Positions 723 through 61,691 of a DNA stretch of 64,000 bases are shown piece after piece. Each line of letters begins with the position of its first letter. Within the stretch, counting starts at the first letter, position 1. Both the position numbers and the translations under genes were made by a program. Under the pieces are notes generated by a model. It had not been told where the DNA came from, made no database searches, and was given only the letters and a program-made list of their open reading frames with translations. Origin of the DNA: a virus; IMG/VR virus record IMGVR_UViG_3300049846_000628, positions 62,001 to 126,000 of that record, one strand, 5' to 3'.

Positions 723-3223
723 TAGGCAAAAAATAAATCAAGGTTTACAGTTTTTTCTACGTTCCATCCAATTGAATCAAGAATTGATTTCAATGGATCC
801 ACAAAACTCTTTTCAAATTGTAGTTCATAGTCAATGTATTTGTCAAGACCAAGTTCTTTTGGAAAATCTTGGATGAAAGAAATTACATTCTCCTGAATTA
901 TATTTGGTTTTTTCAAGAAAATGAACTTGACTTTCTCGCCATTATTAATAAGTGAATATTTATTAGTCAGTTTTTTCTCCTTTATATAATGATTAAAGAG
1001 AAGTGCTCCACGAATATGAATGGGAGTTTTGGGGGCATAAATTGTTGATGATGCTTGATACTTCCTAACATCAGAAGCAGTTCTTGGAAAAGCAATTTGT
1101 TCTGGAGGAAGTGCTTTAAATTCTTTACGACATTTTTCAATAAAGTCAATTACATCTTCTTCAGTTCCACTCATCATAAGTTTTAACCCATCCTTAATCA
1201 TTTGGCGACAAGGAGCTGGGGTTGATGATTTGACTGCCTCAATACCCATCATCTTCAGTTTGGGTTCTTCATACCGAACACCTTCACTATCCCACACGTT
1301 CAGAATGTAACGCTTTTTAGCAGTCCAGATTCCACGCTCAGCAATATTCTCACGCTTCATCTGCATCTTCTGATCGTATGCATTCACATACTCAGCCAGT
1401 TCTTGGTAGCAACTCTCAATATACTTCTCAAGTTCCACCTGACAGATCTTATCAAGGAACGAAACAACGCCTTCAGTAGTTTTCTCTCTTCCTTCGTATA
1501 CACGGTCAACCAAAGGACCCATATTGAGGTAGATAGAATCAGTATCTGAAGCAATAACATAATCAACTCCATCAGTTTTGAGAATCTTGTTTAGATAGGC
1601 ATTCATCTTGTTCTCAATCCAACGAATAGAAACCTGACCAGACAAGGTGATTGCCTCAGCATTTGCTAGTTTGTAATAACGGAAATACTGATTGCCGATA
1701 GCACCATAAGCAGAGTTAAGTTGAATCTTCCTCGCCATTTGGATGTTGTTGCACCGAGCAATCTCTTTTTCCAATTCCTTTGTCTTTTTCTTTTCATACT
1801 CTTGCTTTGCTACAAGCATTTTCTTTTTGTAGATGGTGCGATCTTCATAAATTTTTTGCATTAGTTCTGGAAGGAATCCACGAACATCCTTTCGGAACAT
1901 TGCACCATTCGCACAAACTGCCTTATCCTTATACAGTTCAAATGTAATTTCTTGATTAAGAATCTTATCAACAGTTACATTTGGATGCCTTTCCTCCAGA
2001 AGAGTTTCTGGTGAAATATTGTACTGCATAATGAGATGAGGATATAGGGAGTTAAGATCAAAAGAGACAACCCAATCATACTTCCCTGGAATCGGTTCTT
2101 TAACGTAGGCACCTGCATACTTAGAATCTTTGTCCGAACGTTCTTTTGGAGGAATCACAATATTCCTCTTTTTCAAATAATTGTAAATGATAGTATCCCA
2201 CATCCTAACCTGCGAAAACACATCAGCATAGTTTGCTTTAGCGTCGTAAGCCATTGTGATTGCAAGTTCAATCAGTTTCATCTTGTCTTCCAAACGGTCA
2301 ACAAGTTCCACGTCAACGATGTTGTACTCTACAAACTTCTGCCATCCTTTAGTATAGAAATCTTTGAATGTATCAAACTCAGAGTGATCTAGTTTCTTTT
2401 GCCCAAGTTCTACACTAGCAATGTAATCCAAACGATAAGATTCCTGCGCCTTATAAGTAAACTTCTTATAAAGATTCAGATAATCAAGCTGAGTAATCCC
2501 ACCAACATCGTAGGAAATATGCTTTCGCCCTGCAATATAAATCTCACTCTCAGTCACAAGACCCCAAGGAGACATACGCTTCATCAGTTTTTCACCCAGA
2601 ACACGATCCAGGCGACGAACCAAATACGGGATATCGTACAGTTCACTATTCCATCCAGTTACAACTTCTGGAGTATTTTCTTCAATCATCCACCAGTTGA
2701 TAAAATCATTCAGTAGATCATATTCTGTGGAAAAGGAACGGTACTCAACATTCTTTTGTTTATTTTGAAAAGGACCTTTTCCCCAAGTGCGAATCTTTTT
2801 AGAAGAATAATCTTGAATGGTAATCAAAAGAACTTCCTCTGCAGCAGATTCCACATCAGGGAATCCATTCTCAGAAGCAACCTCAATATCAAGAGTTGTA
2901 ACCTTGATCTTATTGATATCAAATCTCAGTTCTTCTTCAGGATACATCTCAGAAATATATTGATAGATGTATCCTGTATTACCATAGATTTTAAAGTTTT
3001 CTACGCCCTCATACTTTTTAATAAATTCACGACAGTCACGAACAGAACCAGGTTGAACTGATTCAACATAATCCCCACTTAGAGTCTGATATTTAGTTTT
3101 CTTATTAGAAGGAACAAAAAGAGTCGGGTTAAACTTCTCACGGGTCATAAAGTGTTTACCATCTTCATAACCACGGACTAGGAAGTGATCCCCGACCATT
3201 TGGACGTTTGTATAAAATCGCAT
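722..3223 (-). CDS. 43: DNA polymerase gp43, family B with 3'-5' exonuclease
   Basis: This is the replicative DNA polymerase, working with clamp gp45 and loader gp44/62 encoded nearby. The 833 residues show exonuclease motif I (DIE, 112-114), motif II (TGWNSELYD, about 189-197) and motif III (Y300..D304). They are followed by polymerase motif A (DLNSLYPHL, 389-397), motif B (K499..NSAYG, 503-507) and motif C (DTDSIY, 560-565). All catalytic acidic residues are intact. T4 gp43 is 898 aa; the shorter form fits cyanophages. The start overlaps the preceding stop by one base. It is transcribed with the two small genes upstream, probably from the sigma70-like promoter at 3795-3823. Confidence 0.98.
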
Positions 3224-6743: not shown

Positions 6744-6939
6744 AATCAGGTTGGTTATACTTCAAGTATTCAAAAAATGTAAGTTTCATTTCTTTCTGAG
6801 TCATACCACAATGCTTTGCAGCAGCAGGAAGAGTCATCTTTGCGCGAAACAATGCTTCATTTGCTTCCCTAACGTTCTCTGGAGTAGTCTTGACTTTATC
6901 TTCCTTTAGAGACTTATAATCAATTTTATAAGGATTCAT
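6730..6939 (-). CDS. Small conserved protein with helix-turn-helix-like core
   Basis: This 69-aa protein is of a type I associate with the gp44-gp62 interval of T4-like cyanophages. The segment LPAAAKHCGMTQKEMKLTF (about 37-55) has the A..CG(M/V)....E pattern of a helix-turn-helix. The N-terminus (NPYKIDYKSLKED) is charged. The ATG overlaps the gp44 stop by four bases and its end overlaps the next gene by 14 bases, so it belongs to the clamp-loader operon. DNA binding is inference. Function otherwise unknown. Confidence 0.75.
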   Translation of the reverse strand: MNPYKIDYKSLKEDKVKTTPENVREANEALFRAKMTLPAAAKHCGMTQKEMKLTFFEYLKYNQPDYDQS

Positions 6940-7895
6940 ACAAATTCACACTCCACCATTATTTCAGTCAGACAAGCAAGAAGATTTATTTCCTGGTCAG
7001 CAACGAAACAACACTGGTATTGGTACTTAGCAATAATAAGAACGGCAGCAGGGATAGACTGGGGTGAAAGGCAATCATAAGCGGTGTCATAAATCCTGCG
7101 AAGTAGACTAGAAGCATCGTTATCCAAGTTGGAGACCACCCACTTTCTGACTTCAGAAAAGTTTTTATCTTTGAGATTTTTAATAAGTTCATTTACACTA
7201 ACATCAGAAAAAGTTGCAAGAATTCCACTATCAATCTTTCCTCCTGCAGAGTACCTCTGAAGAGTATTGAGAAGTTGCCTTGTATCTGGAAAATAGTTTT
7301 TAATGAGTTCTGCTACAACTTTTTTATCATACCCAACTTTTTCCTCATCAAGAATATGAGACATTCTATTAAAAATAGAAAGCATCAACTCAGGTTTTTC
7401 ATTCTTTGGAATGGGGGTGTATTTAAGAACAACACACCTTGATTGAATTGGTTCAATAATCTTGTTTAGATTATTACAAGTAAAAATAAAACAAACATTA
7501 TTGTGAAGTTGTTCAATTACGCCACGAAGACAGAGCATCACATCATTAGTTGTTCCATCAAACTCGTCAAAAAATACGACCTTTTTCTTATCATTAAACA
7601 TAGAAACAGTTGTTCCAAAGTTAATGACTTGATTGCGAATAGTATCCAAATACCTCCCTTCAGATGAACCATTCAAAAACAAAACATCTTGTTTAGTAAT
7701 CTTACAGAGAGTTTTGATTGTTTGAGTTTTTCCACACCCTTGGGAACCTTGAAGAATAAGATTTTGATTTAGTTGTCCTTCATCTACTACATTAGTAAAA
7801 AACTCTTTTACGCTTTTAGTAAGAATCAAATCTTCAACAGATTCTGGTGCCCAACGCTCAACCCAGAGAAATGGTTTTTTATCAGTCAGTTCCAT
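6936..7895 (-). CDS. 44: Clamp-loader ATPase gp44
   Basis: gp44 is the AAA+ subunit of the sliding-clamp loader and hydrolyses ATP to place gp45 on primer-template DNA. It has 319 residues, the same size class as T4 gp44 (319). Visible motifs are Walker A GSQGCGKT (50-57), Walker B VVFFDE with D110/E111, sensor-region FIFTCNN (about 136-142) and the SRC arginine-finger motif (152-154). The C-terminal collar domain is helical. Upstream lies a GIY-YIG endonuclease gene inserted between gp44 and the small gene at 8489-9001. Confidence 0.97.
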   Translation of the reverse strand: MELTDKKPFLWVERWAPESVEDLILTKSVKEFFTNVVDEGQLNQNLILQGSQGCGKTQTIKTLCKITKQDVLFLNGSSEGRYLDTIRNQVINFGTTVSMFNDKKKVVFFDEFDGTTNDVMLCLRGVIEQLHNNVCFIFTCNNLNKIIEPIQSRCVVLKYTPIPKNEKPELMLSIFNRMSHILDEEKVGYDKKVVAELIKNYFPDTRQLLNTLQRYSAGGKIDSGILATFSDVSVNELIKNLKDKNFSEVRKWVVSNLDNDASSLLRRIYDTAYDCLSPQSIPAAVLIIAKYQYQCCFVADQEINLLACLTEIMVECEFV

Positions 7896-7911
7896 ATCAA
7901 AAAAATAAAAA

Positions 7912-8445
7912 TCAAATGTAATAATAATTTGGGAACGATTTACTTCTCATTCTCCAACTTGCAGTATCCCGATGGATATCAAGTATTTTAGCACACTCTT
8001 TCACAGATTCATAAATGACTCCATCAACACAACATTTTTTACCCATAGATTTTGAAAGATTTTTTCTATGCTCTTCAGTAAAAGGAACTCCTTTTCTTGG
8101 ATGAGAATTTTTAGACCAATATTCTCTTTGCGATTCACGCATTTTATCAATAGAATCTTTAGTATGTTTGGTTCCCCATAAAGAATTCAATGAAGGTTTT
8201 AACCACTCACAATATTGTTGTTCTACTGATTTAATTTCTTCATCTTCGTGAATCCACTTGACTACTTCAATAGTAAAATTATGATACCCATACTTTAAAA
8301 AATTTTCATAAAGTTTAGGACAATCCATTTTATTAGAAGCACACATAGTTATATGTTTAGCAAATCTAAGCATATAATTTTTTTCAGTAGAACCTATGTA
8401 ATTTTCTCCCGTTATTTTGTTTCGTATTTGATAAACACAGTTCAT
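7912..8445 (-). CDS. GIY-YIG homing-type endonuclease
   Basis: This 177-aa protein has an N-terminal GIY-YIG nuclease domain: VYQIRNKITGENYIGST (4-20, with VYQ for GIY), a conserved basic region (R28, H31) and TIEVVKW. A NUMOD3-like repeat follows (HPRKGVPFTEEHRKNLSKSM, about 118-137), then a NUMOD1-like DNA-binding helix (SVKECAKILDIHRDTASWR). That order is typical of phage free-standing or intron-encoded homing enzymes. It stands alone next to the essential gene gp44. Its start codon lies within an 11-bp inverted repeat next to a late-type promoter, like the gating known for T4 I-TevI. Confidence 0.9.
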   Translation of the reverse strand: MNCVYQIRNKITGENYIGSTEKNYMLRFAKHITMCASNKMDCPKLYENFLKYGYHNFTIEVVKWIHEDEEIKSVEQQYCEWLKPSLNSLWGTKHTKDSIDKMRESQREYWSKNSHPRKGVPFTEEHRKNLSKSMGKKCCVDGVIYESVKECAKILDIHRDTASWRMRSKSFPNYYYI

Positions 8446-8482
8446 TTACTAAACCTCGTAGTATAATACTATTTAGTAAATG
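8443..8482 (-). promoter_or_regulatory. Start-codon hairpin with embedded late-type promoter (GIY-YIG gene)
   Basis: On the minus strand CATTTACTAAA (8482-8472) pairs perfectly with TTTAGTAAATG (8453-8443), which includes the ATG. Inside, TAGTAT-T-ATACTA forms a second stem. The ribosome site GAGG lies between them. The 5' arm contains ACTAAATA (8477-8470), a late-promoter variant; a late transcript starting near 8464 would lose the outer 5' arm. Confidence 0.7.
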
Positions 8483-8488
8483 AGTTAT

Positions 8489-9001
8489 TTACACCCAAGA
8501 TGGTCGTCTTTCGGGCAGTCGAAGGTAGTTGTCCTTCACCCAAGGTTTTGAAGCAATGTACCTTTTATATGCAGTAAAGGTATCAATACTCTCATCAAAT
8601 TTCCATTCTTCAGGCATTGCCCTTGCGAACGGAGTTACTTCTGGAATCTTTCCTTTTGGAAACAAATAGAAAGCATCTACAAGAGTCTTGTAGCAGGAGT
8701 GAGTTTTATTATACCGCAAAGTGTACTCATCGCACAAGTTGAGACCCCACTTAATCAACCAATAGGCATTATGGATGTTTTCCATTGCCCATTTGGTGCA
8801 GGGATGATTGCGGAATGCACCTTTTTCAGTTTTGTAAGGGGTATGGTCAGTTTTGTACAAGTAACCATACCCGTACCCCCATTTTTCCGATGCAACGATA
8901 GAAAGCATTTGGCAGCATTCTAAGGGCATCTTGACGATGTGCTTATCGGGGAGACAAATAGCACTTTCTGCAGGCCAAGGGGAGGTAACGAAGATATTCA
9001 T
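8489..9001 (-). CDS. Conserved phage protein of unknown function
   Basis: This is a 170-aa protein from the ATG at 9001; a TTG nine bases upstream is in frame but unnecessary. It begins MNIFVTSPWPAESA and contains LPDKHIVKMPLECCQMLS, a motif I know from a broad family of phage and bacterial proteins with a DKHVVKM signature. NHPCTKWA, NYDWL-like NAYWLIKWG and TPFARAMPEEW follow. Histidine, cysteine and tryptophan are conserved-looking, which suggests an enzyme, but I cannot assign one. The start overlaps the stop of the HExxH gene by one base. Confidence 0.75.
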   Translation of the reverse strand: MNIFVTSPWPAESAICLPDKHIVKMPLECCQMLSIVASEKWGYGYGYLYKTDHTPYKTEKGAFRNHPCTKWAMENIHNAYWLIKWGLNLCDEYTLRYNKTHSCYKTLVDAFYLFPKGKIPEVTPFARAMPEEWKFDESIDTFTAYKRYIASKPWVKDNYLRLPERRPSWV

Positions 9002-9426
9002 CAGAGACAATACTTTTGAACAACATACTTCACTTTTTCTGGTTTATCTTCCATCCAATATGCTTCGTGCTCCATCTTAGCAGATGCAACAGATACCTTT
9101 GTAGAATTTTTAATATCTTGATATTTTGCATCTGGTATTTGCATTTGTTTTTGAGAAATACCAAAAGGTTTATATCCATTGCACATATGACCCACATGAA
9201 CTGCTTCATGATATAGAGTTTCATTTATATAAAACTGTTTATCATACCCACTGTTTTTTATGTTATTGGTGCATATTATAAACTTTTTACCAAAGTCTAC
9301 ATAACCAAATATATCTTTATTACTCCTACAAAATCCAACATTTTCTCTGACTGAATATTTTGCTTTATAAATTTGATTGAGAATGTCTTTGGCTTGAGGG
9401 GTGAGATAAAGAAGAAATTCCATCAT
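9001..9426 (-). CDS. Putative zinc metallopeptidase-like protein (HEAVH)
   Basis: This 141-aa protein contains YHEAVHVGHMCNG; H73-E-A-V-H77 fits the HExxH zinc-binding motif, with H80 and a distal EHEAYWMED as candidate third ligands. The preceding strand FIICTNNI and the INETLYHE helix fit a small metalloprotease fold. No signal peptide or membrane segment is seen, so it should act in the cytoplasm. It overlaps the gp45 stop by four bases (ATGA) and is co-expressed with the replication genes. Activity and substrate are unknown; a structural zinc site is an alternative. Confidence 0.65.
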   Translation of the reverse strand: MMEFLLYLTPQAKDILNQIYKAKYSVRENVGFCRSNKDIFGYVDFGKKFIICTNNIKNSGYDKQFYINETLYHEAVHVGHMCNGYKPFGISQKQMQIPDAKYQDIKNSTKVSVASAKMEHEAYWMEDKPEKVKYVVQKYCL

Positions 9427-18763: not shown

Positions 18764-19345
18764 TTAACTAGATTTCAAGTATAGCACGGCAGACTCAAGA
18801 AAGTCAATGTTATCAAAAAACATTCCCAAACCAATATTACAATTTTTACACAATAATCCTCTAACTTTTCCAGTTTCGTGGTTATGGTCTACTGCTAGAC
18901 TTTTTCCAGTAGAGCATTCACTATTACATATTTTACATTTTTTATTTTGGTCTTCTAATAAAAAATTATAATCTTCTAAAGTGATACCATAATTTGTTTG
19001 TAGATAAGTATCTTTTACATTTTCCTTATTGTTATGATAGTATTCTTTACATTTTTGTCTGGCAATATCATTTTTATATTGGTTTTGATATTTTTCAGGA
19101 TTTTCTTCTCTCCATATATCCAATCTTTTTTTGGATTTCTCTTTTGTCCTATAAGGTTTCATCAACTCTTCATTATTGAGTTTTTCTAGACCTTTCTTTT
19201 TTAAACAGGGGGCACAACTGGAAATAGAAACATACTTTTCATAACTACCACAATGTTTACAAGCAGTAGAACCAATATAAGTTTTTTTACCCTCTTCTAT
19301 TGCTTTTAATCTATTTTCCCTACCCTTACTATATTGGTTAGGCAT
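18764..19345 (-). CDS. Endonuclease VII-like HNH enzyme, likely homing endonuclease
   Basis: This 193-aa protein has the recombination-endonuclease-VII fold signature near the C-terminus: KKCKICNSEC, LAVDHNHETGKVRGLLC and CKNCNIGLGMF, giving two zinc CxxC pairs around a His-Asn-His core (about 133-180). A second pair, CKHCGSYE and CAPC, sits near the N-terminus. It stands between gp55 and gp47, where T4 has no such gene, so it is probably a free-standing homing enzyme rather than the Holliday-junction resolvase gp49. A perfect late promoter and start-site hairpins lie directly upstream. Confidence 0.85.
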   Translation of the reverse strand: MPNQYSKGRENRLKAIEEGKKTYIGSTACKHCGSYEKYVSISSCAPCLKKKGLEKLNNEELMKPYRTKEKSKKRLDIWREENPEKYQNQYKNDIARQKCKEYYHNNKENVKDTYLQTNYGITLEDYNFLLEDQNKKCKICNSECSTGKSLAVDHNHETGKVRGLLCKNCNIGLGMFFDNIDFLESAVLYLKSS

Positions 19346-19390
19346 AGTGCTCCGTAATGTTATAATTATTTATACACTATGGAGCATTAC
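19343..19390 (-). promoter_or_regulatory. Late promoter and start-site hairpins of the HNH gene
   Basis: TATAAATA (19374-19367, minus strand) lies 22 bases before the ATG. Upstream TGCTCC (19386-19381) can pair with GGAGCA (19353-19348), which holds the ribosome site. CATAGTG (19381-19375) can pair with CACTATG (19349-19343), which holds the ATG. A late transcript starting near 19361 would lack both 5' arms. Confidence 0.72.
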
Positions 19391-19970: not shown

Positions 19971-20378
19971 CTATCTTTCTTTAAGACCTTTAAAGATCCT
20001 TTCAAGTTTCTTGCGAGCATCTTCCACAGAAGAGATGTAACCCATCTTTTGAGATAGTTTAATCTTACCAGAAGAATTGTAAACATCAATTCCATCATCT
20101 TCTGAGATGTAATCATCATAGATTTGAATTAACTTCTTATCTTTAGTTTCAGTCATAGTGATTACTTTATCAAGACGAATCATAAAGAAATCATCAGAAG
20201 ACATTTCTATCCAAGGTTTAACCTTAATATGCATTCCTTGTTGATTATGAAAAGCTTTCATAGTTACAGGATTTTGGAGAACAATGATTGGATCTCCATC
20301 ATTCTCATCAATCATTACAAGAGAGAGTATTTCTTCTCCTGATATAAGTTTTATAATAGCGTAAAACTCTTCTCCCAT
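19971..20378 (-). CDS. Small conserved protein C of the SGE/NP/PW family
   Basis: This 135-aa protein has the clearest form of the family shared with 3440-3772 and 3223-3477: IKLISGEEILSLV, IVLQNPVTM, VKPWIEMSSDDFFMI and DKVITMTE. A helical tail follows (KLIQIYDDYI...VEDARKKLERIFKGLKER). Alternating hydrophobic strands suggest a small beta-barrel, perhaps Sm-like, but I cannot confirm it. Its ATG overlaps the UvsW stop by one base (TAATG), so it is coupled to UvsW and lies before gp55. Function unknown. Confidence 0.82.
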   Translation of the reverse strand: MGEEFYAIIKLISGEEILSLVMIDENDGDPIIVLQNPVTMKAFHNQQGMHIKVKPWIEMSSDDFFMIRLDKVITMTETKDKKLIQIYDDYISEDDGIDVYNSSGKIKLSQKMGYISSVEDARKKLERIFKGLKER

Positions 20379-21841
20379 TAGTTTTTAAAAGGTATATTTA
20401 CAATATCATAATTAAAGTTTTCTTCGTTATAAACTTTGATTCTTTCGATTAAGTGATTAAGTGTATAATTTTTTCTTGACTTATAACTGATATCATCGGC
20501 AATATCATATAAAGTTGCTTTAGTTTTATTATCTCCTTTTCTCAGAACTCTTCCGATTGATTGTAGATTTCGGATTCTTGATTTACTAGGAGAAGCAAAG
20601 ATAACATTGTGTAAGTTTTTAATATTGATTCCAGTAGAAAAAGTTCCGTAAGAAGCAACGATGATTGCGTTATTTTCTTTTTCAGTAATTTCTCTGACTT
20701 TTTCTCTATCTTCTGTATCGATACCACCGTGAACAAAGAAGATGTGACGATCTTCATTGGTACTCTTATTTATGAGATCATACAAAGGTTGACCGTGACC
20801 TTCTACTCTAGAAAATAGAATTAGAGTATTACCTTTAAGATCTAAGGCAAGGTTCTTAATGAACTTGTTTCTTTTTTCGTGATTGATAATATATTGAACT
20901 TCATCTTCAAAAGTCTCAAACTTATTCGGTGGGTGTTTCAATAGAAGTATATTGATGTCCAGTTTAGCTACGTGACCTTTTTTCATCAATTCTTCAGTTT
21001 TAATAATCTTATAAGAAGGACCAAATAAACCTTCTAGAACCCACTTATGTGTTTGTGTACCGTCTAATGTTCCTGTAAAACCGTAACGATATTTTGCATC
21101 AGAAAGTTTAGTCATTATAGATACTAATGACTTTGATTTAAACTGGTGTGCTTCATCTCCAACGACCACATTAAATCTTGAAAAGTATTGACGGGGAAGT
21201 TTGTAGATGGACTGCCAGGTTGTAATGATCACCTGAGAGTCTGTTTCTCTTTCTTTACCTGCGTATATCTTGTGGCAATATGAACCCACATCCCACCCAT
21301 AATCTGCAAAGTCTTTATACATCTGCTCTACAAGGGATGTCGTCGGAACGACTATCAGAGTATTTTGTCCTTTCTCAACGTAATATCTCACAATCGAATA
21401 TATCATCAACGACTTTCCAGAAGCAGTTGGAGATATCAACAACTTTCGATTATGTCGTAAAGCGTCGTATACTCCCTCAACTTGGTACTCGCGGGGAGCA
21501 TACTTGCAAATAGAAGTCATATAATCTTTGACTCCCTCTTTTGAAATCATTTCGTTGATTTCAAAGGGAAGACCATAGAATTTATTATTTGTAAACTCAT
21601 AAGTATACTCGTGATTTTCACAGAAACGAGTAATCTTATCTAACAAACCAACGTAGATCTCACCAGTTTGTGTATTAAATAGACGAATTTTTCCGTCCCA
21701 GTGTCTGTTGCGAAACTGGGGCATAAATTTTGCGCCAGGAACGTCAAATGTGAACTGATCCGCAAGTTCATAATAGACGTGAGGCTCTGCCTTTACCTGC
21801 AAATATACTTCATTCTTTTTTGATATCACCAGATGAGACAT
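20378..21841 (-). CDS. uvsW: UvsW helicase
   Basis: UvsW is the late T4 SF2 helicase that unwinds R-loops and branched DNA, shifting replication from origins to recombination. It has 487 residues (T4: 587). The N-terminal FDVPGAKFMPQFRNRHWDG domain matches T4 FEADGYRFNPRFRYGNWDG. Motifs are SPTASGKS (Walker A), GDEAHQF (DEAH box), GFTGTLDG, SRVEGHGQPL and QSIGRVLRKGDN (motif VI). Its start lies directly behind a 9-bp hairpin next to a late-type promoter. Confidence 0.96.
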   Translation of the reverse strand: MSHLVISKKNEVYLQVKAEPHVYYELADQFTFDVPGAKFMPQFRNRHWDGKIRLFNTQTGEIYVGLLDKITRFCENHEYTYEFTNNKFYGLPFEINEMISKEGVKDYMTSICKYAPREYQVEGVYDALRHNRKLLISPTASGKSLMIYSIVRYYVEKGQNTLIVVPTTSLVEQMYKDFADYGWDVGSYCHKIYAGKERETDSQVIITTWQSIYKLPRQYFSRFNVVVGDEAHQFKSKSLVSIMTKLSDAKYRYGFTGTLDGTQTHKWVLEGLFGPSYKIIKTEELMKKGHVAKLDINILLLKHPPNKFETFEDEVQYIINHEKRNKFIKNLALDLKGNTLILFSRVEGHGQPLYDLINKSTNEDRHIFFVHGGIDTEDREKVREITEKENNAIIVASYGTFSTGINIKNLHNVIFASPSKSRIRNLQSIGRVLRKGDNKTKATLYDIADDISYKSRKNYTLNHLIERIKVYNEENFNYDIVNIPFKN

Positions 21842-21871
21842 ATACCCATAATGTATCTATGGGTATTTATT
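21842..21871 (-). promoter_or_regulatory. Late-type promoter with start-blocking hairpin (uvsW)
   Basis: On the minus strand AATAAATA (21871-21864) overlaps the 5' arm of ATACCCATA-GATACAT-TATGGGTAT (21866-21842), a perfect 9-bp stem that abuts the ATG at 21841. A late transcript starting near 21858 would lose almost the whole 5' arm. Confidence 0.68.
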
Positions 21872-55700: not shown

Positions 55701-58700
55701 TCCTGAAATGTTATAAGATCCATTATAAACACTGTTCACAAATGAAATTTGCGAGTAGTTTGTAACTTCAGTATCGGCAGTGCTAATATATCCAGATTTT
55801 TCTAAATTATAGAATAACTTAGATGGGAATCCAGAACTATAATTTATAGTCAATGATGCTGTAGTAGATACACCTACAGTTCCTACTCCAGAAACTGAGA
55901 AAGTATTTGTAGATCCAGTAGAAACAAATTCATCCTTAAAGGTGTTATCATAGAATATTTTAAAGTTGTATCCAGATAGAGAAGAATCTGATAAATCAAA
56001 TACTACATTATTATTAGCAACTACATTTAGTGATGGGTTGATAGGAGATATCTGATGTGTAGCAGATGGAGCACTTGTTATACCAACAACAAGTGGTGGA
56101 GTGCTAGTAGAATCAATTAAAGTATCACATAATTTAATGTTATCATTATCAACCTTATAGATGTAGTAGAAACCTGTCGTTAATCCAGATGCAGGTACAG
56201 TGCTTGAATATAAAATCTTATCACCAGTAGTAAAGGTGTGATTTTGTATTGTAATCTGATTCGTTACCGTATTGATTCCAGATGAGTCGAATGATACGGG
56301 ATTAATGATTAATCTTTCTCTGATAGAATCATACTTAACTTTAATCGCTAATGATGTTCCAATACCAACAGATAGATTTGGTTTTACCTCTAAATCAACT
56401 TTATCTCCAGATAGAAGTCCGTGAGATGTTGAAATTGAAACGGTAGATTTAATACTATCAACATCACCCTTTATCTGTGGGTAATTTGATTGAATTGAAT
56501 ACTGATAACTATCTGTACCATTATTTCTAAAGAACAGTCCACTAGTGGAGGTAGTTAATCCAATTTGAGTAACAATTCCAATATGATCAACAGATTTCTT
56601 AATTACATATACTATCTGCTGATCCCCAGAGAATGGTAAATCAAATGCAGTGCTTGTAGATGTATCAGATACTGAAATAGGTGAAGAAGATGGTAACTTT
56701 CTAAGAACTACTTGCTGATTGGTTGTAAAAGGATGATTTGGTAAGTAAATGGACCGTGTTGGAATTGATGTTGGGATATTACGAGTTCCAATTACAAAAG
56801 TGGTTGAAACTCCAACTCCAGAGGTAGTACCAACACCAACAGACTGTTTAGGATTGAAGTAATAGGTATCGTTTACCTTTGAATCAAAATAAGAAACCGA
56901 CTTATCAATCGTAAAAGTATTGGGGATGTAATTTACTACAGTTGTTGCAGTATGAGCAGCTCCAGTAGTTTCTCTTACAACTCTAAGAACACTATCTTCA
57001 TTAAAGATATTGATGACTGATAGGGTTTCTTGTTCAATTTTTATAGAACTTCCTATAGAAATGTTGTCTGGAATTCTATTTACATAGATGTCTGTAACTA
57101 CACCAGCAACAGAGTATGCTGGAATATCTTTTGATAGTGAAGAAGTGTAAGATGTAACTCCAATCTGACTAAATCCATTAAGTGGAGATAGTTCTGTAGA
57201 GAATCCAGAAATTGTTACATAATCTAAGTTGTTTAGAGTGTGATATGGATCAATAGTTACTTTTACCTGATCGCCACCATTCCAAGTGAATACTACATCA
57301 TCATAAGAAGTTACATTAGTATTAATATTATCAATTTGCTTGCCTGTTACTTCAGAAATTTGAGCGGAAAGACCAGATCCACCAGTGTTACTTTGATCAA
57401 ATTGAACTGAGTCGCCAATTTTATATCCATCACCTTCATCAATTATTTCATAAGAAACAACAGGTCCAGAAGTTACAGAATCTACTACGGTTATTTGATT
57501 GATAATATCATTAGACTCAATGATAAAATCATTCCCAGCAAATTCTTCGTTTACCTTGTATGGTAGTGTGTTTCTGATTAGATTAGATTCGTTAAAATCA
57601 AAAGTTTGATCTAAACTACTATTTTCAGAAATAAACTTAGATCTATACTTATTACCGATAAAGTATGGGAACTGTCCTATAACATTTCCAAAAATGTCTT
57701 GGGTTGATGTTGCAAAGTATGCATATACACCATTAGGAAATTCTGGTGTTACACAATATCTTCCATTATACTCATCAAGATCTCCAGTATTAGTAAATTT
57801 ATAGTCATCTACAAAGAATCCAGGATCAAATCCAGATGGTCTATTTTGGATATTTGAGGTGTTTAAAGTATAACCAGAAACTAGACTCTTGATATCTGAG
57901 TTTTCGTCATCTGGATCAGAGTATCCATATGATCCATAAATTGGATTTCCATCATACGCCCATCCAATAATTGGGGAGTGTTGAGTTCCATCATCAGAGA
58001 ATTGATCTTGAATATCTTGAGAATATCCAGATATTGTATATTGTAAATTATTAAGAGATGAAATAAGAATATCATCAGCAGTTTCTCTTATAGAGTTTTC
58101 TTTTCCATATAAGAGATTTTTATTAATAGTTAAAGCTCTTACTTGAGGATTGAAAATTTGATTCTTACCAGATGCTTCAACAACGATCGTTGTAGTAGAA
58201 GCAGTATATCCTACACCTGGATTTATTACAACTGCATCTGTAAGTTTATTATTTACAATAACGGGCTTGATAAGAGCACCAGTTCCACTACCATAAACTT
58301 TGATCTCAGGTGTTGAATAATATTCAGAACCACTGTATTGGACAGTAACGTCTTCAATACGTCCATTTATAATTACTGGTTTTAGTTGAGCATTCTTACC
58401 ATTCTTAACAAGGATCTTTGGTTTCTTATGTAAGTTTAGGATGTTTGATCCATAATCAGATCCCTTTTCATAGACATATACATCAACAATACTACCTCTC
58501 ACAATTGGTGTAGTTTCAATTTGACCAACAGGTTGAGTGCTTCCAACACCTGCGATACTATACTGTACTGATAATGAAATATCTGGATAACTGAAAACTT
58601 GATATCCTGAACCAGTGCTTCCAAACTTTACATAATTTTTTCTCAAATAATTTGAAGTATTTGTTCCTGCTACTCCAGCATTTGTAATTCTGAAGGTATC

Positions 58701-61691
58701 ATTATCTACTTTAAGAACGTAGTATTGATTTGATGTTGAAACTCCAGAGATAGAAACTGGGACTGTTGTACCAACACCAACTGCAGTAGAATAAGTAATT
58801 AAATCACCATCAGAAAATCCGTGGTTTTTAAATTCTACTGTGCTGTTAACAGTTGAAATACCTAATGGATTTACTCTGAGTTTTCTGTTCTCATATCCAC
58901 TTCCGGGATTAATAACTTTAATCTGAGTCAAAGTCTTTTTAAGGTCTGTTTCAAATTTATGAATACCAGAATTACCTATTGTAGTAAATCCTACAGTATT
59001 AATTCCAGATCTATAATCTGATAAAGTCTGATAAATTTGAATTGTATTATTACTAATATATTTGGTAAAATATGTTGCACCCTTTCTAAGAGTCAGACCA
59101 CTATCAACGTCAAGTCCACCAAATGTTCCTATACCAATCAATGAATTATTTTCAGGATTGTATGTAATTTCCTGACCATCAATTAGTCCGTGAGGATTTA
59201 AAAATGTAATAGTTTCATTAGTAATGTCTAGACCACCACCAAATCCAATTTGTCTAGCATCAAATTCAATTCCTCTTTTTCTTGTCTCAATTACGGGTTC
59301 AAATGTTGCTCCTTTTCCATTTCCTCCAGTAACTGCAATAGACACGATTGCATTAATATCAAAGTCTTGTGGATTTACATAAATCTTTTCAAATGATCCT
59401 CTAACAACTGGCTGAAGAAGCGCCCCACCCGAGGACGGGGTGAGTAAAGGTGGATTTATTACATCAAATCCTGTTCCACCATTTAAAACTTGAACTGATT
59501 CAAGTGGACCATAATAAACTTTTTCATTTGTTTTATATCCACTAATTTCAACACCATTAACCAGCATTCCAACAAATGATACTGGCGTTAAATCTGAATC
59601 ACCATCAGCAATATTAACATTTAGTGGAAACTTTCTTAGAATCTTTTGTGGTGAGATGATAGATTCTTTTTGACTATTCAGGGTAAAATTATGAGTTCCT
59701 GAAGTTAAACTTCCAAATTGAACGTAACTATCAGATCCTATGAAAGATCTTGAACGATATAGTCTAATTTGACGCTCATCATTAATTACTTCAACGTAGT
59801 ATACCCCTTCAGATAACCCAAACATTGCGGTTCCTGATGGTTTGTAGTATACTTCAGATCCAGTATAGAATGAAACTTTATCAATGAAGTTTATGATGGA
59901 GTAGTAACCAGTGGTTACATCTTGACCTGAAACTGATGAAGCATTATAACTAAAGATTTCTGTAGAAATTTCATAGGAAGGCAATGAGTTTGATGCAACA
60001 TACATATACTCATTGTTCTCATTATATACATTTTGAACATCACCAGTTATGTTTGAATACTCAAGTGGTATTTGAGAAGATGTAGCAACTAGTAATTTTC
60101 TTCTGATATCATATTCAAAAGACTGATTAAGGGTAAAAGTTCCATCAGTTGTAACCTGTCTATCATTAATTTGGGTTACTGTTAGGTCGGAAGCTATTAC
60201 AACTTCACTATCCCTACTTAAAATTTCAATAATATCTCCAACTTTTAGACTTGATTTATCAATATTACTCTTTAAAGTGACCTGAGATATTGTTCCAGAT
60301 GCAAAAGTATCAATCTGGTATCTTGAACTGGTGTTATATGTCCAACTATTTGCAAAAATTTCTTTGTATGTTGAATCTTCTACTGGGTTTTCAATGATTT
60401 CACCCAGATTTTTAACAGAAATTTCTTCACCAACATCAATTGAAGATGATTGTGTGATTGAATTGAATCCAGATAAGACACCGGTGATTCTTAGTTCAAC
60501 AAGTTTATTTGGATCTCCGTTTTCAAATCCATAATAAGTTTCATCTGATCTTACATTATCAGTAGGATTTATCTCTTCATCAATACCTGAGCATCCAAAG
60601 AATTGATTTATACTCTTACTGGTATATGTGATTACATTATTACCTGAATATAATGTACCAGACTCTGGGAATCCAATAGTAGAATCTACAGTAATAACCT
60701 CACCTTCTACGGGAACAGTTTCAATTACCTTTGTGCTAGCAGTAATTCCAAATGTTCCAGTAATTGTTGGGGAAGCATCGTCATACCCAACAAATAAAAA
60801 TAGTTTGTAATAGACTTTCTGCCCTCTTCTAATAATTTCTACTTCAGATACAGATGCAGTTGTAGAATCATCTGTAGTCTTTTTAATTGTTTGTCCAGAT
60901 AGTAGCAGAGGATTTCCAGAAATTCTTTCAGCAACGATAACCAATCTTCTTACATAATTTGCAGAAGATGGCTTAAGGAGTGAATTTTCTAAGTTAATAA
61001 CCTTTGGAGTTTCTCCAAACAGGACATTAAAAAGGATTCTAAAAGATTCTTCAGTTCCTTTTGCTTGATATAAAGTTCTTGATTCTTTTATGAAGTTTCC
61101 TACGTTTAGATCAGGAACAAAATTTAGATTTTCTAGACCAGGTGTAAAGGAATACTTTAATTTTTTATAGAATTCTTTTAAGAATAGGGAACTTAAATTG
61201 GTTACAGTGTTATTTGCACTGTGTGCCGAAGCCTGTGAAGTTTTAAAGATTAAATCACCAACATAATTTGTTGTGTTGGTGGTTGTAATTCCTGCATTAT
61301 ATGTGGTAATTCCGCTGAATCCACGAACACATCCAGTAAATGTGTTTGTTGTGATTCCGGTGTAAGTGATTATCTCATCATCAATCTTAAATAGACCATA
61401 GGATTGTGGGAATCCCTTGGTGCTAGACACTTGAATTGTGCTAGCAGTTGAAGAAATACCAGTAGTAAGTTTTGTAGATCCAACTACGACTTCTGGTATT
61501 AAGTTATCAATTTTTAAATATTGATCAAGGTTATCCGAAATATCAATCGGACCACCTTGATACTCTTGAGAAATATAGTATTGTTTTAAGAACTCTGACG
61601 CCTTTGGGTTTTCATCTAATATAAATTCTGGAAGTTGGCTATCAATAATTTGCTGTATCTTAACCCTAGATTCAAAACCAGTTTGTATCAT
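49776..61691 (-). CDS. Giant baseplate wedge protein at the gp7 position (3971 aa)
   Basis: This is a 3971-aa reading frame between gp6 and gp8, the place of T4 gp7 (1032 aa, baseplate wedge initiator). The N-terminus (RVKIQQIIDSQLPEFILDEN, FLKQYYISQEYQGGPIDISD, FIKESRTLYQAKGTEESFRI) is the conserved cyanophage gp7-like part. Most of the rest is repeats: G-x-G-Y units, I-D-x-E-x-I-x-Y/V...RG units, and N-H-x-F-x-x-G-D...YYV-x-K-V-D-N-D units. About one third along is a YHYH-like stretch (YDGNPIYGSYGYSDP; LDEYNGRYCVTPEFPNGVYA). The assignment to gp7 rests on position and the N-terminus. Confidence 0.85.
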   Translation of the reverse strand: MIQTGFESRVKIQQIIDSQLPEFILDENPKASEFLKQYYISQEYQGGPIDISDNLDQYLKIDNLIPEVVVGSTKLTTGISSTASTIQVSSTKGFPQSYGLFKIDDEIITYTGITTNTFTGCVRGFSGITTYNAGITTTNTTNYVGDLIFKTSQASAHSANNTVTNLSSLFLKEFYKKLKYSFTPGLENLNFVPDLNVGNFIKESRTLYQAKGTEESFRILFNVLFGETPKVINLENSLLKPSSANYVRRLVIVAERISGNPLLLSGQTIKKTTDDSTTASVSEVEIIRRGQKVYYKLFLFVGYDDASPTITGTFGITASTKVIETVPVEGEVITVDSTIGFPESGTLYSGNNVITYTSKSINQFFGCSGIDEEINPTDNVRSDETYYGFENGDPNKLVELRITGVLSGFNSITQSSSIDVGEEISVKNLGEIIENPVEDSTYKEIFANSWTYNTSSRYQIDTFASGTISQVTLKSNIDKSSLKVGDIIEILSRDSEVVIASDLTVTQINDRQVTTDGTFTLNQSFEYDIRRKLLVATSSQIPLEYSNITGDVQNVYNENNEYMYVASNSLPSYEISTEIFSYNASSVSGQDVTTGYYSIINFIDKVSFYTGSEVYYKPSGTAMFGLSEGVYYVEVINDERQIRLYRSRSFIGSDSYVQFGSLTSGTHNFTLNSQKESIISPQKILRKFPLNVNIADGDSDLTPVSFVGMLVNGVEISGYKTNEKVYYGPLESVQVLNGGTGFDVINPPLLTPSSGGALLQPVVRGSFEKIYVNPQDFDINAIVSIAVTGGNGKGATFEPVIETRKRGIEFDARQIGFGGGLDITNETITFLNPHGLIDGQEITYNPENNSLIGIGTFGGLDVDSGLTLRKGATYFTKYISNNTIQIYQTLSDYRSGINTVGFTTIGNSGIHKFETDLKKTLTQIKVINPGSGYENRKLRVNPLGISTVNSTVEFKNHGFSDGDLITYSTAVGVGTTVPVSISGVSTSNQYYVLKVDNDTFRITNAGVAGTNTSNYLRKNYVKFGSTGSGYQVFSYPDISLSVQYSIAGVGSTQPVGQIETTPIVRGSIVDVYVYEKGSDYGSNILNLHKKPKILVKNGKNAQLKPVIINGRIEDVTVQYSGSEYYSTPEIKVYGSGTGALIKPVIVNNKLTDAVVINPGVGYTASTTTIVVEASGKNQIFNPQVRALTINKNLLYGKENSIRETADDILISSLNNLQYTISGYSQDIQDQFSDDGTQHSPIIGWAYDGNPIYGSYGYSDPDDENSDIKSLVSGYTLNTSNIQNRPSGFDPGFFVDDYKFTNTGDLDEYNGRYCVTPEFPNGVYAYFATSTQDIFGNVIGQFPYFIGNKYRSKFISENSSLDQTFDFNESNLIRNTLPYKVNEEFAGNDFIIESNDIINQITVVDSVTSGPVVSYEIIDEGDGYKIGDSVQFDQSNTGGSGLSAQISEVTGKQIDNINTNVTSYDDVVFTWNGGDQVKVTIDPYHTLNNLDYVTISGFSTELSPLNGFSQIGVTSYTSSLSKDIPAYSVAGVVTDIYVNRIPDNISIGSSIKIEQETLSVINIFNEDSVLRVVRETTGAAHTATTVVNYIPNTFTIDKSVSYFDSKVNDTYYFNPKQSVGVGTTSGVGVSTTFVIGTRNIPTSIPTRSIYLPNHPFTTNQQVVLRKLPSSSPISVSDTSTSTAFDLPFSGDQQIVYVIKKSVDHIGIVTQIGLTTSTSGLFFRNNGTDSYQYSIQSNYPQIKGDVDSIKSTVSISTSHGLLSGDKVDLEVKPNLSVGIGTSLAIKVKYDSIRERLIINPVSFDSSGINTVTNQITIQNHTFTTGDKILYSSTVPASGLTTGFYYIYKVDNDNIKLCDTLIDSTSTPPLVVGITSAPSATHQISPINPSLNVVANNNVVFDLSDSSLSGYNFKIFYDNTFKDEFVSTGSTNTFSVSGVGTVGVSTTASLTINYSSGFPSKLFYNLEKSGYISTADTEVTNYSQISFVNSVYNGSYNISGVGTTTFVISLQQLPENLTYNYSDCDILKYKTTSRTASGGISKIRTISPGVNFKKIPSFVGTDSINGRGAYVVAKSESIGKINQIRIVNEGFEYPSDKTLRPAASIASLLTIKNSNTISEIEVTNNGKNYVSAPNLIVVDSETGSRIDSGLLVANLSGTSIISVDIDQEPKGLPSTPVTIRAINNTNGVGINTITSSSSGIVTCYLVTPLSGFGTEPFSVGDRIYVEGVQKYSNDGDGFNSDNYGYRFFTVITYENGGTLLPRKLEYSLSGLSTNIGIAKTVQDASSFIVNYKDYPQFEVTQTYSPFIVGETLSVRNETGFEIQDLKVVQDNENYIKVSGDYKISAGQVVRGVQSGNIATINSVQTNTGNFGIDYGSRQDIGWSDDIGKLDEDSQVIPDNDYYQNLSYSVRSNQEWVDIVSPVNSILHPIGLKNFADTTITQSVGVGSTAASESTTILYDIIDENRVDTINNFDLVVDIDTVGSTSRFLKLKNKKLADYIECRTNRVLAIDDISAEFSSSEGNVETFANVLSIDKSDRYNLFIVQITSSDYSQIQLTELVVINDEDDVYTLEKGSISNLDTKIGDVEGYVDSYGEFNLKFTPYDPYNTDYKIKILSDNFSTFFSGIGTYSVGFVDLIGSNAIVSPGITTSLISKSVSKFETLHSQVHILNNTTNEMNYVELYVDHNGTDTNISEFYFDSNSEYSGTFIGSFGASISGGILTLNYTNTSSNDIIVRSKNIGFNTTGSGIGTYRFKKTGQIDGFEGTVNYLSNFSTVSSASTVVSLDTTLFASVKSVVRVSIGQTSALHQVMMIVDDIDTYTVQYPFLSIGSTSGIGSFGGSISGSTASLIFYPDTNISGSFEILSFNEKFYTVTDEINQPNDLEYASIINSVHTANYYGLNSDNLNRLNFDLRYQGYPIFMKEFDPTDSTVLNPATGEFSIENHFFNTGEELIYRPTSTFLGVGATSVGIGSTLNSVGVVTDRLPTTVFAYKVNNDVFKLSTRKEYATAGICVTFTSLGEGNAHQLEMVKKNEKSIITLDNVVQYPISYSLINTTLNNKAPIGAATTIFALSGISSINVNDLIKIDNEYMKVNNVGLGTTTLGPISFSGSVPLVQVQRGFVGSSATSHTDASAVNVYRGSFNIAGNQIFFTNPPQGIIEDQLGPDVDNLSEARSSFNGRVFLRKDYTTNQIFDDISERFTGIGQTYTLSSQGISTVGFGTTGGNGIVFINGVFQTPTTQNNLSNNYSIVENTNLGISSIVFSGITSTNGSVIISQSDVNMNQLPRGGVIISLGSTTGVGYAPLVGASVTAIVGAGGSIVSIGIGSTGNYGSGYRNPVSIAITESGHTGTAATISAIVGAGGTLAFNIVGGGSGYVNPTINISSPNYENLPVIGVSRLGVGATTDTGVGLLLNVEVGASSTVGVGSTLFEVTGFSVTRSGYGFKKGDVITPVGLVTDFGLPSPVSQFQLTVLDTFTDSFAAWQFGELDYIDSVKDYQDGSRTRFPLFYNSQLLSFEKNSSDPDSQLIDFDALLIIFVNGVIQEPKVAYQFTGGTSFTFTEAPKPEDDVAIFFYRGSSLDSSFRDVNETLKIGDDVQVYSNNALLQSTTTQNSRVISNIPSSDKIQTNLYILQGIDTVNEKPLSWTKQKVDKIIDGGIVSKARDSIEPQIYPTAKIIGNITSSDSSIYVDNAEFFNYENVSPGSINFNAIIISGAPDPVSAAVTATVSVAGTISSLTINNPGSGYIGSAVTVSISAPPSIGVGIGTTATATISIVNGSLSTVSITNPGFGYTAGIVPQVLVPLPDPTYENISNVTTVQGFSGNVVGIATTVGIGTNLAIKFTLDPSLSPFTNLSVNQPIYVFDTFVGNGVTSIVNTDSAKVGVGTTFLDNIYYINAFNASVGIITCNVQSTTSIVGIATTGSSVGKFSWGKLSGFSRSSSPISIAVSAYNVDAGLSTFPTVQRRGYGLRDIGPIKKTL

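What the first reader, a model, noticed from the sequence alone, without database searches (positions are those of the whole stretch)
8443..8482. GIY-YIG endonuclease start codon locked in a hairpin that a late promoter would open
An 11-bp perfect inverted repeat contains the ATG in its 3' arm and a late-type box ACTAAATA in its 5' arm, with a second 6-bp stem and the GAGG ribosome site inside. Read-through early RNA would fold and hide the start; RNA begun at the late promoter would lack the outer 5' arm. This is the logic known for T4 I-TevI (same nuclease class), here in a free-standing cyanophage gene beside gp44.
Basis: partly seen in the sequence, partly recalled or inferred. Interest (0 to 1): 0.74.

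Follow-up and report, generated by a model that had tools for sequence, protein, structure and literature searches.

The report
Timed start-codon lock on homing endonuclease
A selfish DNA-cutting gene in a virus of cyanobacteria carries its own late promoter inside an RNA hairpin that hides its start codon, so that only late transcripts should be translated; the trick is known from phage T4, but here it recurs, with strong evolutionary evidence, in several other genes of cyanobacterial viruses.

Summary
The inverted repeat is real. It is 12 bp and perfect (8442-8453 / 8472-8483), and the gene lies on the minus strand (8445-7912). The gene is a free-standing GIY-YIG endonuclease inserted exactly between the denV-like stop and the gene 44 start. 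The leader belongs to the mobile cassette: 40 of 41 metagenomic relatives keep it even where the upstream gene differs. ACTAAATA is a genuine late-type box of this genome, found de novo, at the usual distance from the ATG. The arm upstream of the box is not needed by a promoter, yet it is about six times more conserved than four-fold sites. A lock on read-through RNA, released by late initiation, is therefore the best explanation. No timing data exist, and this leader itself shows no covariation. The mechanism is already known in T4 (I-TevI/II/III, e, soc, 49) and in free-standing segB and Aeh1 mobE. Beyond the finding: the same nested design occurs in other genes of this genome and of two of three cyanophage isolates, with strong compensatory covariation in a NUMOD3 endonuclease family, an endonuclease VII family and UvsW. 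Late boxes precede 10 of 11 endonuclease genes here, against 18% of other genes. My lock score recovers e, I-TevII and segB as the top three in T4.

The parts
7912..8445 (-). GIY-YIG free-standing homing-type endonuclease, 177 aa, with an I-TevI-type DNA-binding tail
   Evidence: Pfam GIY-YIG 1.5e-9; I-TevI_DNA-bd 1.5e-5, just under its cut-off; PHROG homing endonuclease 4e-20; aligns weakly to I-TevI catalytic domain 1MK0/1LN0 with Tyr, Tyr, Arg of the active site kept
8472..8483 (-). 5' arm of the outer hairpin (15 bp, to 8486, in most relatives)
   Evidence: pi 0.038 vs 0.242 at four-fold sites
8442..8453 (-). 3' arm of the outer hairpin, containing the ATG (8445-8443)
8470..8477 (-). late-type promoter box ACTAAATA, 24 nt before the ATG
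   Evidence: (A/C)TAAATA is the strongest 7-mer class upstream of genes in the 211-kb genome; distance 24 nt in all 20 distinct relatives
8464..8464 (-). predicted late transcription start (6 nt past the box, by analogy with T4 late promoters)
   Evidence: inference; no mapping data
8459..8471 (-). inner stem TAGTA/TACTA with TTA loop
   Evidence: G-C to A-U double change in L031
8454..8458 (-). CGAGG Shine-Dalgarno, in a bulge between the two stems, 8 nt before the ATG
8489..9010 (-). denV-like pyrimidine dimer glycosylase; stop codon 8491-8489 is 5 nt upstream of the hairpin
   Evidence: Pfam Pyr_excise 5.2e-17
6936..7895 (-). gene 44 clamp loader, downstream flank in every printed relative
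   Evidence: Pfam Gp44_lid
19346..19388 (-). second lock in the window: leader of endonuclease VII gene 18764-19345; arms 19388-19375 / 19359-19346, box TATAAATA 19374-19367
   Evidence: lock score 9.8 kcal; family covariation 0/500 shuffles
21842..21871 (-). third lock in the window: leader of UvsW helicase gene 20378-21841; arms 21866-21857 / 21851-21842, box AATAAATA 21871-21864
   Evidence: lock score 9.8 kcal; arm-swap z = -10.8 over 59 relatives

Best explanation
A self-contained timing switch carried by a mobile endonuclease gene. The cassette sits inside the replication gene cluster (gp45 - hypothetical - denV-like - endonuclease - gp44), which is early/middle in T4-like phages, and brings its own leader. 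RNA reading through from upstream contains both arms, folds, and hides the AUG (and crowds the SD in a bulge), so little endonuclease is made. Late RNA polymerase starts at about 8464, inside the loop, so that RNA lacks the outer 5' arm and half of the inner stem, leaving SD and AUG open. Shown by sequence: arms, box, insertion point, leader conservation, recurrence of the design. Inferred: folding in vivo, late start at 8464, repression and release of translation.
For: Box: ATAAATA occurs 51 times upstream of genes against 4.9 expected, CTAAATA 16 against 1.7; distance to ATG 24 nt, typical of late genes here. Leader is cassette-borne: kept where the upstream gene differs and absent from the empty allele L142 (denV TAA-ATT-ATG gp44). 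Selection on the arm outside the promoter: pi 0.038 vs 0.242 at four-fold sites, P = 0.0009. Energetics: 11.0 vs 3.3 kcal/mol. Same design with covariation in sister systems: NUMOD3 endonuclease family, 8 pairs with double changes, 0/500 shuffles, arm-swap z = -7.2; endonuclease VII family, 5 pairs with double changes, 20 cells, 0/500 shuffles reach the cell count, z = -3.9; UvsW z = -10.8. Genome-wide: 8 of 52 late leaders have a lock of at least 6 kcal, 1.26 expected; replicated in isolates S-SRM01 (8 vs 1.7, p = 0.0002) and S-SKS1 (5 vs 1.6, p = 0.017). Positive control: the score ranks T4 e, I-TevII and segB first, all described as hairpin-controlled (PMC2988022, PMC3014915).
Against: No expression data. 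In this family own arms pair no better than swapped arms, one compensatory pair only, and 4 of 19 leaders carry C.A in mid-stem. G.U versus A.C counts do not separate RNA hairpin from DNA palindrome. Across four genomes locks are not more common where the upstream genes lack late boxes. In S-SRM01 endonucleases are no more locked than other late genes, and in MA01 there is no excess of locks. Ribosomes ending on denV, 5 nt upstream, could open the hairpin.
Confidence: 0.78

Rival explanations
1. DNA-level palindrome: the repeat is an operator around the late promoter, bound by the endonuclease (autorepression as in I-TevI) or by a phage factor; RNA folding is incidental.
For: Arms straddle the promoter; wobble pairs are not in excess of A.C mismatches; I-TevI is known to repress its late promoter at a homing-site-like operator (PMC2988022).
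Against: The leader does not resemble the gp44 or denV-gp44 junction above shuffles (p 0.065 to 0.93). In three other gene families with unrelated arm sequences the 3' arm always abuts or includes the start codon.
Confidence: 0.1
2. Only the promoter and the start region are selected; the repeat persists as a remnant of recent common ancestry of the cassette.
For: Low diversity of the family (84-100% aa identity); no covariation in it.
Against: The arm segment outside the box is far more conserved than four-fold sites (P = 0.0009); independent families keep pairing by compensatory change.
Confidence: 0.08
3. Intrinsic terminator or RNA-stability hairpin.
For: Two other late boxes in this genome do lie in terminator-like loops.
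Against: No U-run on either side of this hairpin; the scan finds no terminator here.
Confidence: 0.03

Closest known systems
T4 I-TevI, I-TevII, I-TevIII leaders
   Same: GIY-YIG or HNH endonuclease; late or middle promoter inside or next to an RNA structure that hides the RBS in read-through RNA (PMC2988022)
   Different: Those genes are intron-encoded; here free-standing, in a Kyanoviridae-type phage; the start codon rather than the SD is paired; no homing-site-like operator detected
T4 segB
   Same: Free-standing GIY-YIG endonuclease with late promoter and hairpin (PMC2988022, PMC3014915)
   Different: Lies between tRNA genes, not beside gene 44; leader sequence unrelated
Aeromonas phage Aeh1 mobE
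   Same: Free-standing endonuclease whose RBS is shown to be sequestered by a hairpin (PMC3014915)
   Different: HNH class, inserted in nrdA
T4 gene e, soc and 49 leaders
   Same: Late gene on early read-through RNA, locked by a hairpin whose 5' arm is lost when transcription starts at the late promoter (PMC3014915)
   Different: Ordinary phage genes. Gene 49 is endonuclease VII, so the lock at window 19346-19388 is its closest parallel
Cyanophage late promoter NATAAATA (S-PM2, Syn9)
   Same: Box class (PMC2984593)
   Different: CTAAATA form used here
F-CphI, free-standing homing endonuclease of S-PM2
   Same: Cyanophage free-standing homing endonuclease (PMC5931967)
   Different: Next to psbA; an antisense RNA, CfrI, rather than a start-codon hairpin is reported (PMC2984593)

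Membership tests
GIY-YIG endonuclease (I-TevI-like) | GIY-YIG catalytic domain with active-site residues | tested here: met
   Pfam E = 1.5e-9 over cut-off; Tyr, YIG and Arg positions align with 1MK0; first motif reads CVYQ instead of GIYQ
Homing endonuclease | Gene inserted at a defined site with empty alleles in relatives | tested here: met
   Empty alleles L142 and S-SRM01; always just 5' of gene 44
Homing endonuclease | Cleaves the empty allele and spreads | not testable with these tools
   needs biochemistry or crosses
Late-promoter-nested translational hairpin (I-TevI/segB/e class) | Late promoter box positioned so that late RNA lacks the 5' arm | tested here: met
   Box 8477-8470, predicted start 8464, outer arm 8483-8472
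Late-promoter-nested translational hairpin (I-TevI/segB/e class) | Hairpin hides SD and/or start codon in read-through RNA | tested here: met
   Predicted fold only: opening cost 11.0 vs 3.3 kcal/mol
Late-promoter-nested translational hairpin (I-TevI/segB/e class) | Base pairing kept by selection | tested here: inconclusive
   Conserved but no covariation in this family; strong covariation in three sister systems
Late-promoter-nested translational hairpin (I-TevI/segB/e class) | Early and middle transcripts are not translated, late ones are | not testable with these tools
   no expression data
I-TevI-type autorepressor | Operator resembling the homing site overlaps the promoter | tested here: not met
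   no similarity above shuffles to the gp44 or denV-gp44 junction; the true cut site is unknown

The most novel reading that the evidence does not exclude
Cyanophages use the nested late-promoter/hairpin lock as a general second layer of timing, recurring in unrelated DNA-cutting and DNA-remodelling genes (GIY-YIG and HNH-type homing endonucleases, endonuclease VII, UvsW), with locks that mobile genes bring along as part of their cassette.
Probability: 0.6. Interest if true: 0.66.

Novelty: new member of a known kind. Interest (0 to 1): 0.52.

Why it matters
It explains how a DNA-cutting parasite can live inside the replication gene cluster of a virus without being made too early, and shows that the timing device is inherited with the parasite. 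The wider pattern, with covariation in UvsW and endonuclease genes and replication in two isolates, suggests that a regulatory logic thought of as a handful of T4 cases is shared by cyanophages. It can be tested directly with transcription-start and ribosome-profiling data from cultured phages such as S-SRM01 and S-SKS1.

Tried and rejected
I-TevI-style operator: leader compared with gp44 and the denV-gp44 junction, nothing above shuffles. Terminator: none at this hairpin. Rfam: no family matches in the window. Leader as an element shared by different genes: a pattern scan of IMG/VR returned only contigs of this endonuclease or contig ends. Wobble test for RNA versus DNA palindrome: undecided. 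Prediction that locks concentrate behind non-late operons: not supported, 10/50 vs 14/94, p = 0.29. Covariation in the HNH family at G000 184406: not significant (z = -1.0), although its own hairpin is 13 bp. Primary papers on mobE and segB are not held, so those rest on two reviews.

Full report
WHAT IS THERE. The gene lies on the minus strand, 8445-7912. It encodes 177 aa with a GIY-YIG domain and an I-TevI-type DNA-binding tail. It sits between a denV-like glycosylase (8489-9010) and gene 44 (6936-7895), with gp45 further upstream; all read on the minus strand. Read on that strand the leader is TAA-ATAACTCATTTACTAAATAGTATTATACTACGAGGTTTAGTAA-ATG. TCATTTACTAAA and TTTAGTAAATGA are a 12-bp perfect inverted repeat. 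Between them are the last two bases of the box, a 5-bp inner stem and the CGAGG Shine-Dalgarno, which falls in a bulge. The fold is far better than shuffles (z = -3.9).

THE BOX IS A REAL PROMOTER CLASS. I took the rest of the 211-kb virus record, called genes, and asked which 7-mers are enriched upstream of starts. ATAAATA (51 vs 4.9 expected) and CTAAATA (16 vs 1.7) stand out. This matches the cyanophage late promoter NATAAATA reported for S-PM2 (PMC2984593). In the late leaders the box typically ends 20-25 nt before the ATG; here it is 24. Between G000 positions 59,200 and 73,600, the replication-gene region, this is the only gene with such a box within 100 nt of its start.

THE LEADER IS PART OF THE MOBILE CASSETTE. 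IMG/VR holds 41 loci with relatives of 84-100% aa identity. All printed copies are immediately upstream of gene 44, in two divergent gene-44 clades. Forty of 41 keep the leader; L008 lacks it. The sequence from ATAACTCATT onward is nearly the same even where the upstream sequence is different (L009, L010, L028, L040). The empty allele L142 has denV TAA-ATT-ATG gene 44 and no box. A DNA-pattern scan for the leader found only this gene or contig ends.

SELECTION ON THE LEADER. Mean pairwise difference is 0.242 at four-fold sites of the gene, 0.038 in the 9 nt of the 5' arm upstream of the box (P = 0.0009), 0.030 in the box and 0.038 in the 3' arm. A T4-type late promoter needs only the box (established knowledge), so conservation of the extra arm calls for another role. 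In most relatives the stem is 15 bp. However, the family is too uniform for covariation: 94.7% of cells pair, with one compensatory pair and no excess over shuffles, and own arms pair no better than swapped arms. Four of 19 distinct leaders have C.A at one mid-stem pair.

THE SAME DESIGN ELSEWHERE. I scored every late leader for the extra cost of opening -14..+6 when the RNA includes the 50 nt upstream of the late start. In this genome 8 of 52 score at least 6 kcal/mol, against 1.26 when upstream arms are swapped among late leaders (no permutation in 5000 reached 8). Among the top ten are the finding's gene (7.5), an endonuclease VII gene (window 18764-19345, 9.8), UvsW (window 20378-21841, 9.8), an HNH-type gene (G000 184406, 9.6) and two further endonuclease genes (12049, 47828). 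Ten of 11 intact endonuclease-like genes have a late box within 45 nt of the ATG, against 48 of 270 other genes (Fisher p = 7e-7). Endonuclease genes here score higher than other late genes (p = 0.007; 0.009).

COVARIATION IN THE SISTER SYSTEMS. Relatives were fetched for four of these genes and the leaders read. NUMOD3 endonuclease family (G000 47828): 8 of 16 pairs change on both sides, 29 cells, 0 of 500 shuffles, arm-swap z = -7.2. Endonuclease VII family: 5 of 14 pairs, 20 cells, 0 of 500 shuffles for cells and score, z = -3.9. UvsW: a short hairpin starting at the box itself, arm-swap z = -10.8 over 59 distinct leaders, and a late box in all 75 leaders. HNH family at 184406: not significant. 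In the three covarying families the promoter lies in the 5' arm or loop and the 3' arm abuts or nearly abuts the start codon.

REPLICATION AND CONTROL. Late boxes precede endonuclease genes in the isolates S-SRM01 (11 of 13, p = 3e-7) and S-SKS1 (5 of 5, p = 6e-5), weakly in MA01 (3 of 5, p = 0.065). Excess of locked late leaders: S-SRM01 8 vs 1.7, S-SKS1 5 vs 1.6, MA01 3 vs 2.6 (none). UvsW is locked in S-SRM01 and S-SKS1 as well (S-SRM01 gene identity; the S-SKS1 gene is identified by its length and its MSHL start). As a positive control the same score on T4 ranks e, I-TevII and segB first, second and third; all three are described as hairpin-controlled (PMC2988022, PMC3014915). The T4 excess as a whole is only marginal (5 vs 2.4, p = 0.058).

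WHAT DOES NOT FIT. Locks are not significantly commoner where the upstream genes lack late boxes (10/50 vs 14/94, p = 0.29), which the simple read-through model would predict. In S-SRM01 endonuclease genes are not more locked than other late genes (p = 0.41). Wobble counts cannot exclude a DNA palindrome. A ribosome finishing denV stops 5 nt from the hairpin and may melt its base. Two of the eight locked leaders in this genome (10350, 11169) are terminator-like with the late box in the loop, a different use of the same geometry.

COMPARISON WITH THE KNOWN. The mechanism is that of I-TevI, I-TevII, I-TevIII, segB, Aeh1 mobE and T4 e, soc and 49 (PMC2988022, PMC3014915). segB and mobE are free-standing, so 'free-standing' is no novelty. 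I found no report of it for cyanophage endonucleases or UvsW in the held library; most subscription papers are not held. I therefore file the finding as a new member of a known kind, and the recurrence in cyanophages as the part worth following.

Noticed in passing
L163:10836-10885 (-) and L163:11334-11380 (-); S-SRM01 record position about 206,930-206,970: Late box (CTAAATA) in the loop of an intrinsic-terminator-like hairpin followed by a T-run: upstream RNA would stop there while late RNA starts inside the loop and escapes. Present twice in this genome and, before a gene of similar size, in S-SRM01.
   Followed up: partly
L126:1855-1935: A different GIY-YIG gene (30% identical) lies between gp45 and the denV-like gene, with an 18-bp predicted helix and TATAAATA inside it, directly before the ATG.
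   Followed up: partly
window 21842-21871 and homologues L360-L439: UvsW leader hairpin overlapping the late box is conserved with strong covariation in many cyanophage contigs.
   Followed up: yes
window 7896-7911: Gene 44 downstream of the endonuclease has no Shine-Dalgarno (TTTTTATTTTTTTGAT-ATG); in many empty alleles it starts a few bases from, or overlapping, the denV stop, so the insertion may uncouple or change its translation, and it adds a late promoter upstream of gene 44.
   Followed up: no
G000:C1:145842-146186 (-): Endonuclease VII-like remnant with six in-frame stops, perhaps a decayed copy of a mobile endonuclease.
   Followed up: no
window 2938-2976: Another 12-bp perfect inverted repeat (CAGGATACATCT/AGATGTATCCTG) inside an 833-codon reading frame.
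   Followed up: no
S-SKS1 HQ633071.1 about 58,149-58,195: Very strong lock (17 kcal) with GATAAATA nested between GATGGGAGCA and TGCTCCCATC before a hypothetical gene; the deposited start lies 15 nt upstream of the ATG used here.
   Followed up: partly
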